Below, piece after piece: positions 49,947-53,957 of a stretch of 64,000 bases of DNA (position 1 is the first letter of the stretch; each line of letters opens with the position of its first letter). Both the position numbers and the translations under genes were made by a program. This stretch comes from Lysobacterales bacterium (GTDB lineage: Bacteria; Pseudomonadota; Gammaproteobacteria; Xanthomonadales; SZUA-36), in contig JAOUCS010000001.1 in the NCBI GenBank assembly GCA_029859645.1, positions 1-64,000 on the forward strand. Direction: 5' to 3'. Under the pieces are notes generated by a model. The model worked only from the letters and a program-made list of their open reading frames with translations, ran no database searches and had not been told where the DNA came from.

Positions 49947-50738
49947 TCATGTCAGGAATGACGTCATGATGAAGTCAAAAATCAGAATCAGTACAGAGCT
50001 CAAAACCACCGTGTTGGTCGTGGCGGTTCCTACTCCAGCGCCGGTGGGGCGGGCGGAATATCCGAAATAAACGGCTATCAGGCTGACTGTGCCGCCAAAT
50101 ACGAAGCTTTTCCAGACACCGCCGATGAAGTCTTTTTGAAAATAAATGCTGGTCTGCAGCTTACTCCAGAAAATACCCGAATCCAGGTCCATCACGCCGA
50201 TGGAAAAAACAACGCTGCCGAGAATAGCCATCGCATTGAACATCGCGGTCAACAGCGGTACGGAAATCAGGCCGGCGGCAAAACGCGGCAGCGCGATCCG
50301 GTGGATGGGATCGATCGCCATCAGTTCCATCGCCTCAATCTGGTTGGTGGCCTTCATCAGGCCAATTTCGGCCGTGATTGATGTACCGGCACGACCGGCG
50401 AACAGCAGTGCGGTGAGTACAGGCCCCAGTTCCCGGAACAGTGATTTCCCGACCAGCACGGAAACCTGGTCGGAAGCGCCGAACTGCTCAAGCGCGTTGA
50501 TTGCCTGTAATGACAGCACCATGCCGACGAAGAAACCACAAATCATGATGATGACCAGTGAGCGGGCGCCGATCAGGTACGTTTGCTGCATGACCGTTTG
50601 TATCTGGGTCAAGCTGAACCGGATGCCGGCCAGCATCCGAAACAGGAACAGCAGGCACTGGCCTGCCTGGGATACAGGGCCGCTGATCACGCCCGTTCGA
50701 TTTTCCAGGTTCACTTTGCTCAATCCAGCAGCCTCCAA
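49947..50738 (-). CDS. mlaE: Phospholipid ABC transporter permease MlaE
   Basis: A ~263-residue inner-membrane permease with about five helices. The MlaE family pattern ELGPVLTALLFAGRAGTSIT, then AEIGLMKATNQIEAMELMAI (containing the conserved Glu-rich cytoplasmic loop) is clear, as is the C-terminal SSVLILIFDFIMTSFL. It forms the channel with MlaF ATPase and MlaD. Start: a TTG at 50738 overlapping the end of mlaF is used; TTG 50723 or GTG 50714 are possible, all giving overlap or near-overlap. Confidence 0.92.
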   Translation of the reverse strand: MEAAGLSKVNLENRTGVISGPVSQAGQCLLFLFRMLAGIRFSLTQIQTVMQQTYLIGARSLVIIMICGFFVGMVLSLQAINALEQFGASDQVSVLVGKSLFRELGPVLTALLFAGRAGTSITAEIGLMKATNQIEAMELMAIDPIHRIALPRFAAGLISVPLLTAMFNAMAILGSVVFSIGVMDLDSGIFWSKLQTSIYFQKDFIGGVWKSFVFGGTVSLIAVYFGYSARPTGAGVGTATTNTVVLSSVLILIFDFIMTSFLT

Positions 50739-51544
50739 GGCGCGCCGGGAGGTTCATAGTGAAATGGAATGGGCCCTTCAACCCGACCATTCATGAACTG
50801 GCTGACGCCCGGATCGGAACTGTCAATCAGGTCCCGAGGCGCTCCTTCACCGGCGATTCTGGAAGAAGCGATGATGTAGCAGTAGTCGACCAGGTTGCTG
50901 ATCTGATTGACGTTATGAGTAACGATCACACTGGTCAGGCCCAGGGCGTTATTGGTTTCACGCATCAGTCTGCGGATGGTTGAAACCGCAATGGGATCCA
51001 GTCCTGTCAACGGCTCGTCGTACAGCATGATATCGGGATCCAGCACCACAGATCGGGCAAAAGCGATCCGGCGCGCCATACCGCCGGACAATTCATGAGG
51101 CATGCGGTCTTCCGTGCCGCCGAGGCCGACAGCGCTCAATTTGCTCATGACCACTCGCCGGACCAGGGGTTCCGGCAGGGAGGTGTGTTCCCGGATGGGT
51201 GTGGCGATGTTCTCAAAAACGGTCAGGTCGGTAAACAAGGCGCCGTCCTGCAACAGTACGCCAATGTCCCGGCGGAAGAGTTTCAGTTCACGGTCTGACA
51301 TCGCAGAAATCAACTGGCCATTGATCTCAATCGTGCCTTCATCGGGACGGAGTTGTCCGGAGATCAAGCGCAGGATAGTGGTCTTGCCTGCGCCGCTGGG
51401 CCCCATGAAAGCCACGATCGAGCCCCGCTGGATGTCCATGCTGACACCGTCAAGGATGGTCCGACGTCCACGACAGAACACCAGGTCCCTGATTCGGATG
51501 ATCGGATCATCCGCTTTGATGCTGTTATTGCCGGACTCGTCCAT
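50720..51544 (-). CDS. mlaF: Phospholipid ABC transporter ATP-binding protein MlaF
   Basis: A 274-residue ATPase. Walker A is VAFMGPSGAGKTTILRLI, the Q-loop is IGVLLQDGALFTDLTVFENI (split), the signature is LSGGMARRIAFARSV and Walker B is IMLYDEPLTGLDP. The short C terminus (FHYEPPGAPWRLLD) resembles the MlaF tail that contacts MlaB. The ATG at 51544 is preceded by CAGGATACC. A frame extension to 51604 runs into the upstream terminator and is not supported. A possible -10 (TACAAT, 51572-51577) lies between the ncRNA terminator and this start, so the mla operon seems to have its own promoter. Confidence 0.94.
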   Translation of the reverse strand: MDESGNNSIKADDPIIRIRDLVFCRGRRTILDGVSMDIQRGSIVAFMGPSGAGKTTILRLISGQLRPDEGTIEINGQLISAMSDRELKLFRRDIGVLLQDGALFTDLTVFENIATPIREHTSLPEPLVRRVVMSKLSAVGLGGTEDRMPHELSGGMARRIAFARSVVLDPDIMLYDEPLTGLDPIAVSTIRRLMRETNNALGLTSVIVTHNVNQISNLVDYCYIIASSRIAGEGAPRDLIDSSDPGVSQFMNGRVEGPIPFHYEPPGAPWRLLD

Positions 51545-51602: not shown

Positions 51603-51633
51603 AAAAAAAGAGAGGAGGCTTGCGCCTCCTCTC
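51603..51633 (-). terminator. Intrinsic terminator of the candidate ncRNA
   Basis: A perfect 10-bp stem (GAGAGGAGGC / GCCTCCTCTC, 51610-51619 and 51624-51633) with a four-base loop is followed on the minus strand by seven T (51609-51603). It stops minus-strand transcripts just before the mlaF promoter region. Confidence 0.88.
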
Positions 51634-52185
51634 CGTGTAGAAGTATTGGAACTCCGCACTGGTGGACTGCAGATCCTCCTTGGCCTTTCCAACTCCGTCC
51701 GATTCCTCAGTACTCTGCCTCTGGGCTTCGGTCGCGGGACTTCTACTCCCGCCTTATTTCTCGACGTCTTTCGGTCTTCCGATTCCACAGGGTTGCGCCC
51801 GTTTCCTCGTCGGTTTCCAGAACTTGCGTTCCTTTCACCTCTCGGCTCTTCCGGCTCGCGCCTTCCAAGCTCTGGACTTTCCGCTGCCGAAGCTGCTTCT
51901 TGTCCGTGATCGTCCGAAGCGTGAACTTCTCCGATCTTTTTCGACCTTCTTCAGCGCTAACTGGTTCCAGTCTGTCGACCTGCTGAGGCTTGCACCTCCT
52001 GGCGTCTATCTCAAGGGATCGCGTCTCCCTTTCGAGTCACCCTTCTTTGGTACGACCGACTTTTGCAGAGCCCGGTCTGGGTGACGTGCTCAGTACCATG
52101 TGAGCACTTTAGCCGTCTTCCGTAACCCTCCTTAATGCCTTCCGGCGGGTCGGCCGTCCGGCCGGTGGGTTTCGTCTAACGGGGT
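51603..52185 (-). ncRNA. Candidate structured, GGA-rich non-coding RNA
   Basis: This 580-base stretch between mltF and mlaF has no credible protein gene. On the minus strand it has a good sigma-70-like promoter (TTGACA, 17 bases, TAATTT), and it ends in a 10-bp GC-rich hairpin followed by seven T. By hand count about 26 GGA triplets occur on this strand between 52140 and 51600, against about 6 on the other. Several hairpins are visible: 52151-52164 with a GGAC loop, 52086-52107 (7-bp stem), 52010-52036 (9-bp stem with a 2-base bulge) and 51734-51752. GGA-loaded RNAs often sequester CsrA/RsmA, so a CsrB/RsmZ-like role is possible. It does not look like tmRNA, RNase P RNA or 6S RNA. An open frame of about 97 codons without an ATG (51743-52035) overlaps it and is not convincing. 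Confidence 0.6.
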
Positions 52186-52385
52186 ATTAAAATTACTCCT
52201 CGAAGATCGGCCTGTCAATACAGTTCGATGACAGCTTAGGAGTCAAAATTCAAGACTTGCCTCATGTCCGATTGCCAAGTTACTGAATTATTACAAGTCG
52301 CAAAAATTTCCCAATTTCTGCGTTTGCGACGAACCGAATTTTACGGTTAAAAAATGATCACACCGGAAATCAAAGAGCAGATACT
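52186..52385. other. AT-rich intergenic region upstream of mltF
   Basis: The 200 bases upstream of mltF are AT-rich and without a gene. They contain the ncRNA promoter on the minus strand and must contain the mltF promoter on the plus strand, which I cannot place with confidence. The short inverted repeat AACCGTAAAATTCGGTT (minus-strand reading, about 52333-52349) may be a protein-binding site. Confidence 0.45.
52190..52218 (-). promoter_or_regulatory. Sigma-70-like promoter of the candidate ncRNA
   Basis: On the minus strand, TTGACA at 52218-52213 is separated by exactly 17 bases from TAATTT at 52195-52190. The expected start is near 52184. The -35 box is a perfect consensus, unusual among the promoters in this window. 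Confidence 0.7.
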
Positions 52386-53957
52386 ATGACTCTCATGCTG
52401 AAAAAATCTTTCCTGATGTTCCTGTTGCTGGCCCTCGCAGCCTGCGGAAAAGCTCAGTCCGAGTCAGCGGAATCTGCACCTGTTTCCAACCAGCGAGAAT
52501 CTGTCGAACCGGTTGAGCAAGCCGCCGAAAACCATCAGGCCCTGGCCAGAAAGCAGGCGCCCAGGATGACGCTCGACCAGATCCAGGAAGACCTGGATAT
52601 TCCCGGGCTGTCGCGACCCTGGACCGGTGACCTCGATGGTATGGTGGAGAGGAGGCTGGTCAGAGTGCTCACCGTCTACGGCCTGGGCAGGTATTACGTG
52701 GATAACGGGCAGGAAAAGGGAATGACCTTTGAGCTGATGAAAATGTTCGAGGGTGAGCTGAACAAGCGATTCGGCAATAAGGCTCTGCCGATCCACCTGG
52801 TATTTATCCCGGTCGCCCGTGACGAACTGATCAGGGGCCTGGTTGAGGGCCGGGGCGACATTGCTGCAGCTGGATTGACGATTACTTCTGATCGGCAGGA
52901 ATTGATCGAGTTTTCAGATCCGATGACAAGGACACTGTCGGAGGTTCTCGTCACGGGCCCGTCCGCGCCCGAGGTCAACCGGCTTGAAGACCTGGCCGGC
53001 AGGGACGTTTATCTGCGGGCATCCAGCAGCTACCGGTCCAGCCTGGAAGACATTAATCGCCGGTTTCGCGAGCAGGGGCTGGAAGAAATCGTCATTCAGT
53101 ACATATCTGAACACCTGGAAGACGAGGATTTGTTGGAAATGGTAAACAGTGGATCGCTGGAATGGGCGGTAGTGGATGATTACAAAGCCGATGTCTGGGC
53201 GAGTGTTTTTGAAAATCTGATCGTGCGCAAGGATATCGAGTTTCGCAAGGGTGGACAGCTGGGGTTTGCCCTGCGCAAAGACAGCCCTGAATTGAGGGAG
53301 TTCGTCAACGGCTTCGTCAAGGGGCATCGCCAGGGTACGCTGAAGGGCAATATCCTGATCAAGCGATATGTCGATAACTTCGATTGGTCAAAGAACATCC
53401 TGGGCGCTGCCGATTACGAAAGATTCCTGGAGGTTGTGAATATTTTTGAGAAGTACGGTAATCAATATGGGATTGATTACCTGATTGTCACTGCACAGGG
53501 CTACCAGGAGTCCCAGCTGAAGCAATCCGCCAGGAGCAAGGCCGGGGCGGTCGGTATCATGCAGTTGTTACCCAGCACGGCGGCGGATCCAAATGTAGGA
53601 ATCAGCGATATTTCCACGGTTGAAGCAAATATTCATGCGGGTATCCGATACCTTGATTTCCTGCGAAACCGATATTTCAGCGACTTGTGGACGGACGAAC
53701 TCAACCAGACACTGTTCGCCCTGGCGGCCTATAATGCGGGTCCGGCTCGCGTCGCCAGGCTGCGACAAAAAGCAGCCGCGCAGGGTTACGACCCGAACAA
53801 GTGGTTTGACCATGTGGAAGTGATAGCGGCAAAAGAAATCGGGCGGGAAACGGTCCAGTATGTCGCAAATATCCTGAAATACTATGTGGTTTACCGCCTG
53901 AGTATTGTTCGCACGCTGCAGAGGCGTGAAGAGCGAGAGCAACAAGCAATCCATTAA
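52386..53957 (+). CDS. mltF: Membrane-bound lytic murein transglycosylase F (MltF-like)
   Basis: A 523-residue lipoprotein (signal FLMFLLLALAACGKAQ with lipobox LAAC). Residues ~85-315 form an ABC-type amino-acid-binding-like domain (KGMTFELMKMFEGELNKRFG, then GRGDIAAAGLTITSDRQEL). Residues ~345-500 form an SLT goose-type lysozyme domain with YQESQLKQSARSKAGAVGIM (catalytic Glu), AAYNAGPARVARLR and YVANILKYYVVYR. It cleaves glycan strands to give anhydromuropeptides. The regulatory N-terminal domain is as in E. coli MltF. The start is the ATG at 52386 after CAAAGAGCAG; a second Met at residue 4 is possible. Confidence 0.92.
   Translation: MTLMLKKSFLMFLLLALAACGKAQSESAESAPVSNQRESVEPVEQAAENHQALARKQAPRMTLDQIQEDLDIPGLSRPWTGDLDGMVERRLVRVLTVYGLGRYYVDNGQEKGMTFELMKMFEGELNKRFGNKALPIHLVFIPVARDELIRGLVEGRGDIAAAGLTITSDRQELIEFSDPMTRTLSEVLVTGPSAPEVNRLEDLAGRDVYLRASSSYRSSLEDINRRFREQGLEEIVIQYISEHLEDEDLLEMVNSGSLEWAVVDDYKADVWASVFENLIVRKDIEFRKGGQLGFALRKDSPELREFVNGFVKGHRQGTLKGNILIKRYVDNFDWSKNILGAADYERFLEVVNIFEKYGNQYGIDYLIVTAQGYQESQLKQSARSKAGAVGIMQLLPSTAADPNVGISDISTVEANIHAGIRYLDFLRNRYFSDLWTDELNQTLFALAAYNAGPARVARLRQKAAAQGYDPNKWFDHVEVIAAKEIGRETVQYVANILKYYVVYRLSIVRTLQRREEREQQAIH

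What the first reader, a model, noticed from the sequence alone, without database searches (positions are those of the whole stretch)
51603..52185. GGA-rich structured RNA upstream of the mla operon
Seen: a ~580-base region with no credible protein gene has a TTGACA-17-TAATTT promoter, a 10-bp terminator hairpin with seven T, at least four stable hairpins (one with a GGAC loop) and about 26 GGA triplets on the minus strand against about 6 on the plus strand. Known: RNAs such as CsrB and RsmZ carry many GGA motifs in loops and sequester CsrA/RsmA. Inference: this is an undescribed non-coding RNA, perhaps a CsrA antagonist of unusual length for its kind. I cannot place it in a known RNA family.
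Basis: partly seen in the sequence, partly recalled or inferred. Interest (0 to 1): 0.65.

Follow-up and report, generated by a model that had tools for sequence, protein, structure and literature searches.

The report
New pseudoknotted noncoding RNA beside mlaF
An uncultured family of bacteria carries a previously uncatalogued, intricately folded RNA gene with its own promoter and terminator; the fold is conserved, but the proposed job of soaking up the regulator CsrA is not supported, so its function is open.

Summary
In detail: the minus strand of 51603-52185 is a free-standing RNA gene (TTGACA-17-TAATTT, intrinsic terminator, 28 GGA against 6 on the other strand). No Rfam family matches. 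Homologues occur in 33 of 39 genomes of its family (inferred to be SZUA-36, Lysobacterales) and 3 of 4 genomes of a second family; none was confirmed elsewhere in the samples searched.

Covariation supports a conserved core. One pseudoknot (hairpin loop with the stretch before the terminator) co-varies; a second (UGGUAC/GUACCA) is nearly invariant. Two near-invariant strings, GAGAUAGACG and CGUCGAUAAA, form a stem that can carry an expandable arm. Members lengthen a 5' arm or this middle arm, not both (28 of 28, though from few lineages).

It is not a leader of mla: it ends before mlaF and elsewhere lies convergent to ychF-like or glnE-like genes. CsrA sequestration is not supported: GGA is above chance in 28 of 31 members, but A(N)GGA is below chance in 18 of 31 and GGA is hardly more unpaired than average, unlike E. 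coli CsrB. I read it as a new family of structured, trans-acting RNA, probably a scaffold. Expression and function are inferred.

The parts
51603..52183 (-). The RNA gene (start about 52183, inferred from the -10 box; end at the T run)
   Evidence: Promoter and terminator read from the sequence; homologues
52213..52218 (-). -35 box TTGACA
   Evidence: TTGACA in 30 of 31 SZUA-36 members with a readable 5' end, TTGACT in one; TTGACC or TTGACT in the three f5 loci
52190..52195 (-). -10 box TAATTT, 17 nt after the -35 box
   Evidence: TA-N3-T at the same spacing in 31 of 31
52276..52287 (-). Upstream element TTCAN4-5YTTG, about 56 nt before the -35 box
   Evidence: At 55-56 nt, one substitution allowed, in 25 of 25 f1 loci outside g7/g10 for which the script found a promoter
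52325..52337 (-). Upstream element TTCGNTTYRTCGCA (core match TCGGTTCGTCGCA), 106 nt before the -35 box
   Evidence: Up to two substitutions allowed: at 96-107 nt in 24 loci, at 7 nt in 3 loci of g7/g10, not found in the three f5 loci; L019 has too little upstream DNA. The one exact match in the window; five more with one mismatch, 6 in all against 1.5 expected
52086..52107 (-). Hairpin GTGCTCA/TGAGCAC whose loop carries UGGUAC
   Evidence: Two-sided changes at six of six pairs in A1, which includes this RNA, and in A5, 18 relatives without it
52093..52098 (-). Pseudoknot 1, loop strand UGGUAC
   Evidence: 98.1% of cells paired with the homologue of 52048-52053, but 4 of 6 pairs never vary and 2 vary on one side only
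52048..52053 (-). Pseudoknot 1, partner GUACCA
52003..52012 (-). Invariant string GAGAUAGACG, 5' strand of the core stem
   Evidence: Invariant in 30 of 30 rows of A1 and 18 of 18 of A5
51767..52002 (-). Middle arm (arm B), 236 nt here, 6-558 nt in relatives
   Evidence: Arm lengths; folds
51754..51766 (-). CGUCGAGAAAUAA, 3' strand of the core stem and the A-rich string after it (CGUCGAUAAANAA in most relatives)
   Evidence: the four stem pairs never vary in A5, so they rest on complementarity
51734..51752 (-). Hairpin GCGGG/CCCGC whose loop holds GUAGAAGU
51739..51746 (-). Pseudoknot 2, loop strand GUAGAAGU
   Evidence: 8-bp complement of 51637-51644; matched loop-tail pairs score 390 against 316 +/- 13 for shuffled pairs, 0 of 2000
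51637..51644 (-). Pseudoknot 2, tail strand ACUUCUAC, just before the terminator
51603..51633 (-). Intrinsic terminator: 10-bp hairpin and seven U
   Evidence: covarying stem in A2
50720..51544 (-). mlaF, next gene on the same strand, with a TACAAT -10-like box after the RNA terminator (neighbour, not part)
52386..53957 (+). mltF, divergent neighbour (not part)

Best explanation
A new family of free-standing, trans-acting structured RNA. Shown by sequence: its own conserved promoter with two spaced upstream elements, a compact core with a stem between two near-invariant strings, a pseudoknot joining a hairpin loop to the 3' tail that co-varies, a likely second pseudoknot, and one expandable arm at either of two places. 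Inferred: it is transcribed under a regulator that reads the upstream elements, ends at the intrinsic terminator, folds into a stable object and acts in trans as a scaffold (for proteins or for further copies of itself), the core doing the conserved work and the arm serving as an adjustable peripheral extension. The GGA excess is then mostly a by-product of short G+C stems set in purine-rich internal loops and linkers.
For: No Rfam match. Homologues: blastn 31 of 101 relatives, all in one family; covariance models 33 of 39 family genomes plus family f5, 3 of 4 genomes. Two-sided changes in 17 of 30 pairs of the 5' core, 16 of 33 of the 3' domain; 94.6% of cells paired against 32-42% when the partner is slid. 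Pseudoknot 2: 390 against 316 +/- 13, 0 of 2000. Promoter: TTGACA in 30 of 31, upstream elements at nearly fixed distance. Free-standing: terminator before mlaF; in g7 (L030) the RNA lies convergent to ychF and in f5 (L077, L101, L102) convergent to glnE (gene names are my reading of the translations). Arms not both long in 28 of 28. RNase P in the own genome and 6S in 35 of 39 family genomes are encoded elsewhere, so it does not replace them.
Against: No expression data. No partner, ligand or phenotype is known, so 'scaffold' is the default for such a fold, not a result. G024 has mlaF (82% identical) with no RNA upstream and no match elsewhere, though it is only 77% complete. Pseudoknot 1 and the core stem hardly vary, so they rest on complementarity only. 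Pseudoknot 2 is only 4-5 bp in many members; of seven members looked at singly, L010, L023, L024 and L025 pair best with their own tail, L006, L007 and L021 do not; and the shuffle ignores relatedness. The arm exclusivity follows lineages, so it may reflect few events. Arm A folds either as one long rod or as an array.
Confidence: 0.5

Rival explanations
1. A CsrA/RsmA antagonist: the many GGA motifs bind CsrA dimers and titrate them, the arms adding binding sites.
For: GGA above expectation in 28 of 31 members, z 2.5 in the window RNA; arms expand with GGA-bearing hairpin units; csrA in 31 of 39 family genomes, three copies in this genome; GGA somewhat better kept than other triplets in the 3' domain and in arm B of seven relatives.
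Against: A(N)GGA below expectation in 18 of 31 members; GGA at most 0.14 more unpaired than average, CsrB 0.36, CsrC 0.19; three homologues without excess; 2 of 15 core GGA positions kept in 90% or more; a strongly conserved core and tail pseudoknot is not what a sponge needs.
Confidence: 0.14
2. A cis-acting leader of the mla operon (riboswitch or attenuator) whose terminator is conditional.
For: Upstream of and co-oriented with mlaF in 29 of 29 loci with a readable mlaF and in g10 (L079); ends in a terminator.
Against: In g7 (L030) and in family f5 the RNA is elsewhere and convergent to its downstream neighbour; 23 of 29 loci have a TACAAT box in the stretch before the mlaF match; no alternative antiterminator pairing was seen, although I did not search for one systematically.
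Confidence: 0.06
3. A trans-acting base-pairing sRNA (Hfq or ProQ type) in which the structured core protects a seed region.
For: Independent promoter and terminator with a U tail; regulated-looking promoter.
Against: Length and fold are far beyond usual seeds (recalled); part of the conserved unpaired sequence is accounted for by pseudoknots; no target search was made.
Confidence: 0.12
4. A ribozyme or ligand-binding RNA: the near-invariant GAGAUAGACG/CGUCGAUAAANAA strings are a catalytic or binding core.
For: Invariance of core strings across two families; pseudoknotted closure.
Against: No resemblance to a known ribozyme or riboswitch in Rfam; no substrate known; no co-oriented gene directly downstream in L030, L077, L101 and L102.
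Confidence: 0.1
5. An RNA part of a mobile element or defence module.
For: In f5 the locus lies next to a transposase-like ORF of the REP-associated kind (my reading).
Against: Kept at the mlaF locus in most genera of one family; one copy found in the own genome and no secure second copy elsewhere; no linked reverse transcriptase or nuclease noticed in the ORF lists, which I did not search with family models.
Confidence: 0.03

Closest known systems
CsrB/CsrC, RsmX/Y/Z, Xanthomonas RsmU (CsrA/RsmA-sequestering RNAs)
   Same: Hairpins and many GGA; variable number of GGA-bearing hairpin units (that CsrB-type RNAs vary so is recalled); own promoter and terminator as in CsrB (recalled).
   Different: No A(N)GGA excess, GGA hardly more unpaired than average, GGA positions little conserved in the core, conserved core with pseudoknots. 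RsmU is processed from a 3'-UTR and its two forms have four and three GGA (PMC7694677, passages seen).
Large ornate RNAs GOLLD, ROOL, OLE (PMC12286853; abstract and Main section seen)
   Same: Large structured RNA, elaborate covarying fold, function open.
   Different: No sequence match in Rfam, which is recalled to hold these families; shorter core and other taxa (recalled). Whether it forms homo-oligomers is untested.
raiA motif RNA / ModT (PMC11706538; abstract seen)
   Same: Conserved structured RNA acting in trans, its mechanism long open.
   Different: No Rfam match to it here (that Rfam holds raiA is recalled); raiA is in Bacillota and Actinomycetota.
6S RNA and RNase P RNA
   Same: Structured RNAs of a few hundred nucleotides with independent genes.
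   Different: Both found elsewhere: RNase P in this genome, 6S in this genome and 34 others of 39.

Membership tests
CsrB/RsmZ-type CsrA antagonists | Match to a covariance model of the family in Rfam | tested here: not met
   No match at gathering score in the window; at E up to 5 only a chance Tymo_tRNA-like hit at the RNA; in ten homologous loci hits at E up to 1 lie outside the RNA
CsrB/RsmZ-type CsrA antagonists | Excess of A(N)GGA motifs | tested here: not met
   16 against 13.1 expected here, below expectation in 18 of 31 members; CsrB 21 against 9.2, CsrC 15 against 5.9 (overlapping patterns, so AAGGA counts twice, in the shuffles too)
CsrB/RsmZ-type CsrA antagonists | GGA displayed in loops or single strands | tested here: not met
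   Mean unpaired probability of GGA 0.47 against 0.43 overall; above average in 25 of 31 members but by 0.14 at most; CsrB 0.80 against 0.44, CsrC 0.61 against 0.42
CsrB/RsmZ-type CsrA antagonists | GGA positions conserved among homologues | tested here: inconclusive
   Core 2 of 15 kept in 90% or more; 5' core 0.41 against 0.53 for other triplets, 3' domain 0.64 against 0.51; arm B 0.64 against 0.45 in seven relatives; arm A 0.42 against 0.35 in twelve; CsrB was not put through this test
CsrB/RsmZ-type CsrA antagonists | Binds and titrates CsrA | not testable with these tools
   Needs a gel shift or pull-down
Riboswitch or attenuator leader of mla | Always upstream of and co-oriented with the regulated gene | tested here: not met
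   True in 29 of 29 mlaF loci, but not in g7 (L030) or f5 (L077, L101, L102)
Large ornate free-standing RNAs (as a kind) | Elaborate secondary structure supported by covariation | tested here: met
Large ornate free-standing RNAs (GOLLD, ROOL, OLE, raiA as families) | Sequence and structure match to the family model | tested here: not met
   No Rfam match; that Rfam holds these models is recalled
Large ornate free-standing RNAs | RNA-only homo-oligomer | not testable with these tools
   Needs mass photometry or cryo-EM
RNase P RNA / 6S RNA | Is the genome's only copy of that RNA | tested here: not met
   RNase P at G000:C193, 6S at G000:C234

The most novel reading that the evidence does not exclude
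A new class of bacterial RNA machine: a knotted core, invariant across two families at GAGAUAGACG and nearly so at CGUCGAUAAA, that works together with one interchangeable, length-variable arm placed at either of two sites. The arm would act as a tunable reach or valency module of an RNP or of an RNA-only assembly, produced under a dedicated upstream regulator.
Probability: 0.3. Interest if true: 0.8.

Novelty: new variant of a known kind. Interest (0 to 1): 0.55.

Why it matters
Large structured bacterial RNA classes are few, and their functions are mostly open (PMC12286853, Main section, for GOLLD, ROOL and OLE). This one comes with usable covariance models, a co-varying tail pseudoknot, a natural experiment in where an arm may be attached, and a strictly spaced promoter. 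It also shows how a GGA count can mislead: CsrB passes the context and accessibility tests that this RNA fails.

Tried and rejected
CsrA sponge: tested against E. coli CsrB and CsrC and the genome's own RNase P and for GGA retention; not supported. RNase P and 6S: found elsewhere. Rfam at lenient thresholds: chance hits only (the microRNA-model hits in L077 at 74-199 lie away from the RNA).

Wider homologues: hits in G178, G554, G168, G234, G496, G564 at E 0.002-0.01. I examined five of the six; G168 (E 0.0095) was not followed. G178 and G554 have no R2 match. G234 (L103) has a terminator between two pstS-like genes (my reading) that matches R2 and R3 weakly, and I judge it chance. G564 (L098) and G496 (L099) have no R2 support beside the R3 hit. 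The phylum sample gave the own genome only (1 of 239). Pattern scan of 28 stretches: L051, L052 and L057 have no match to the core profile and are taken as chance; the other 25 match.

Second copies: G035's two hits are one RNA split over two contigs (127 bp, 100% identical); G038's two copies are 91% alike in a genome with 6% contamination, so paralogues are not established.

Own errors: one search used a wrong-frame mlaF translation, replaced. One search took wrong tails for L007, L010, L025, L101 and L102 and was replaced (29 rows, 28 distinct), which leaves out the divergent members L030, L077, L079-L081, L101, L102.

Papers: PMC8767757 turned out to concern SZUA-363 and was dropped; PMC3971182 passages were seen and not used. 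In print: listings of searches (3 papers, passages of two seen; 10 of 59 listed; 11 of 12; 8 of 1589; 8 of 99) were seen; none of the titles and abstract starts shown describes this RNA.

Rows dropped: L008, L009, L013, L019 were left out of the alignment; L030 was not used for models R1 and R2, L013 not for R1, L039 and L045 not for R2; L013 and L015 are not among the 31; L013, L030, L039, L045 are not in the arm count of 28.

Full report
What is there. The minus strand of 51603-52185 is an RNA gene between mltF and mlaF. The GGA excess is about 2.5 standard deviations above dinucleotide shuffles, less than the raw 28 against 6 suggests. The strand folds better than its shuffles (z -2.8), its complement less so (z -1.7). 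ARAGORN finds no tRNA or tmRNA in the window, and no Rfam family matches.

Who has it. blastn finds it in 31 of 101 relatives, all within family f1. Covariance models R1 and R3 find it in 33 of 39 genomes of f1. Of the six without, two have mlaF at a contig edge (G028, G036), three have no close mlaF in the assembly (G002, G007, G034; best matches 31-40% identical), and G024 has mlaF without the RNA upstream. R3 also finds family f5, 3 of 4 genomes, at E 1e-22 to 4e-14, and R2 independently matches the adjoining 3' domain there. Nothing convincing was found in the other genomes of the order sample (398), the class sample (369) or the phylum sample (239), which overlap (stricter filters, so weak relatives may be missed). 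Family f1 is probably SZUA-36 of the Lysobacterales: contigs of G038 and G006 have the lengths of QIKV01000052.1 (isolate SZUA-36) and SHZL01000036.1, and a paper lists SHZL01 under 'Lysobacterales; SZUA-36' (PMC11080526, passage seen). This is an inference.

It is a gene of its own. It sits upstream of mlaF in 29 of 29 loci with a readable mlaF and in g10 (L079), but the upstream neighbour changes (mltF found in 7 of 30 loci, some of them with too little flank; another membrane-protein gene in two g8 genomes). In g7 (L030) it lies between a lysC-like gene and ychF, convergent to ychF; in f5 it is convergent to glnE. Gene names here are my reading of the translations. 23 of 29 loci have a TACAAT box in the stretch before the mlaF match. 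TTGACA is kept in 30 of 31 members and TA-N3-T at 17 nt in 31 of 31. Upstream, TTCAN4-5YTTG lies 55-56 nt from the -35 box in 25 of 25 f1 loci outside g7/g10, and TTCGNTTYRTCGCA lies 96-107 nt from it in 24 of these (the 25th, L019, has too little upstream DNA) and 7 nt from it in three loci of g7/g10. In the three f5 loci the second of these elements is not found and the first not at that distance (script allowing one or two substitutions; 31 of 38 loci had a promoter it recognised). The window holds five further one-mismatch matches to TTCGNTTYRTCGCA, more than expected (6 in all against 1.5), so it is not unique to this gene. This looks like a regulator's site.

Fold. In the 5' core 17 of 30 predicted pairs have two-sided changes, in the 3' domain 16 of 33. 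On an alignment of 18 RNAs that reaches g7, g10 and one f5 member, the named structure pairs 94.6% of cells, against 87.2% for shuffled partners and 32-42% for slid ones, with 14 of 28 pairs changed on both sides. The hairpin that carries UGGUAC changes on both sides at six of six pairs; UGGUAC with GUACCA is nearly invariant, and the GACG/CGUC stem is invariant, so both rest on complementarity. Pseudoknot 2 is better supported: the loop after CGUCGAUAAANAA pairs with the tail before the terminator, GUAGAAGU/ACUUCUAC here, GUAGUC/GACUAC in L010, UGGAAGA/UCUUCCA in L024, CGGUAAG/UUUACCG in L025; matched pairs score 390 against 316 +/- 13 (0 of 2000 shuffles of 28 distinct rows). Against it: many members have only 4-5 bp; of seven looked at singly L006, L007 and L021 score better with some other member's tail; and the shuffle ignores relatedness.

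Two alternative arms. The 5' stretch up to GCCGACCC is 30-31 nt in 11 members and 98-436 nt in 17; the middle arm (B) is then 18-558 nt and 6-17 nt respectively. No member of 28 has both long. Two cautions: L010 and L011 have a middle arm of only 18-20 nt, so nearly none, and arm type follows genus, so the 28 are far fewer independent events; I built no tree. The 5' stretch grows in about 56-nt steps (100, 156, 209-214, 436), with a 28/56-nt period in L019; L009's arm B has 34- and 58-nt repeats. Units are short G+C stems separated by purine-rich stretches, which would explain much of the GGA count; single-sequence folds give either rods or arrays.

The CsrA idea. In CsrB, A(N)GGA is 21 against 9.2 expected and GGA is unpaired 0.80 against 0.44; CsrC 15 against 5.9 and 0.61 against 0.42. 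In the window RNA the figures are 16 against 13.1 and 0.47 against 0.43; the genome's RNase P, as a structured control, has 5 against 3.6 and 0.40 against 0.37. Over the 31 members computed, GGA is above expectation in 28 (z 2 or more in 11), A(N)GGA is below expectation in 18, and GGA is more unpaired than average in 25 but by 0.14 at most. GGA positions are not better kept than other triplets in the 5' core (0.41 against 0.53), but are in the 3' domain (0.64 against 0.51) and in arm B of seven relatives (0.64 against 0.45). csrA is in 31 of 39 genomes, 21 of 22 of the better ones, which is nearly universal and so weak evidence. A Xanthomonas RNA binds RsmA in vitro even after its GGA motifs are changed (PMC7694677, passages seen), so counts alone cannot exclude binding.

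Reading. Shown: a new RNA family, independent gene, conserved fold, a co-varying tail pseudoknot, arms of two types, spaced promoter elements. Inferred: transcription, regulation, and action in trans as a stable scaffold. Closest in kind are the large ornate RNAs and raiA/ModT (PMC12286853, abstract and Main section seen; PMC11706538, abstract seen), none of which it matches in Rfam. I found no description in print in searches, of which only the listed top was seen.

Noticed in passing
52276-52287 and 52325-52337 (minus strand): Two upstream elements keep their distance to the promoter to within a few bases in nearly all f1 members examined; in g7/g10 one of them is 99 nt closer, right at the -35 box. 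Regulator unknown.
   Followed up: partly
L030 1260-1720, L077 1773-2170, L101 1365-1780: The RNA gene has moved: ychF/lysC-like neighbourhood in g7, glnE-like gene and a transposase-like ORF in family f5.
   Followed up: yes
G000 (C209, C90, C143): This genome carries three csrA copies while most relatives carry one.
   Followed up: no
L109 (G024:C250): mlaF 82% identical to the window's MlaF but no RNA upstream: a loss, a move or a binning error.
   Followed up: partly
L045/L085 and L012 (G038): Two RNA versions 91% alike in one MAG with 6% contamination; one contig ends inside the RNA, the other begins about 200 nt before it.
   Followed up: partly
L077 74-199: Sub-threshold microRNA-model hits on both strands at the start of the glnE-like region; taken as chance.
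   Followed up: no
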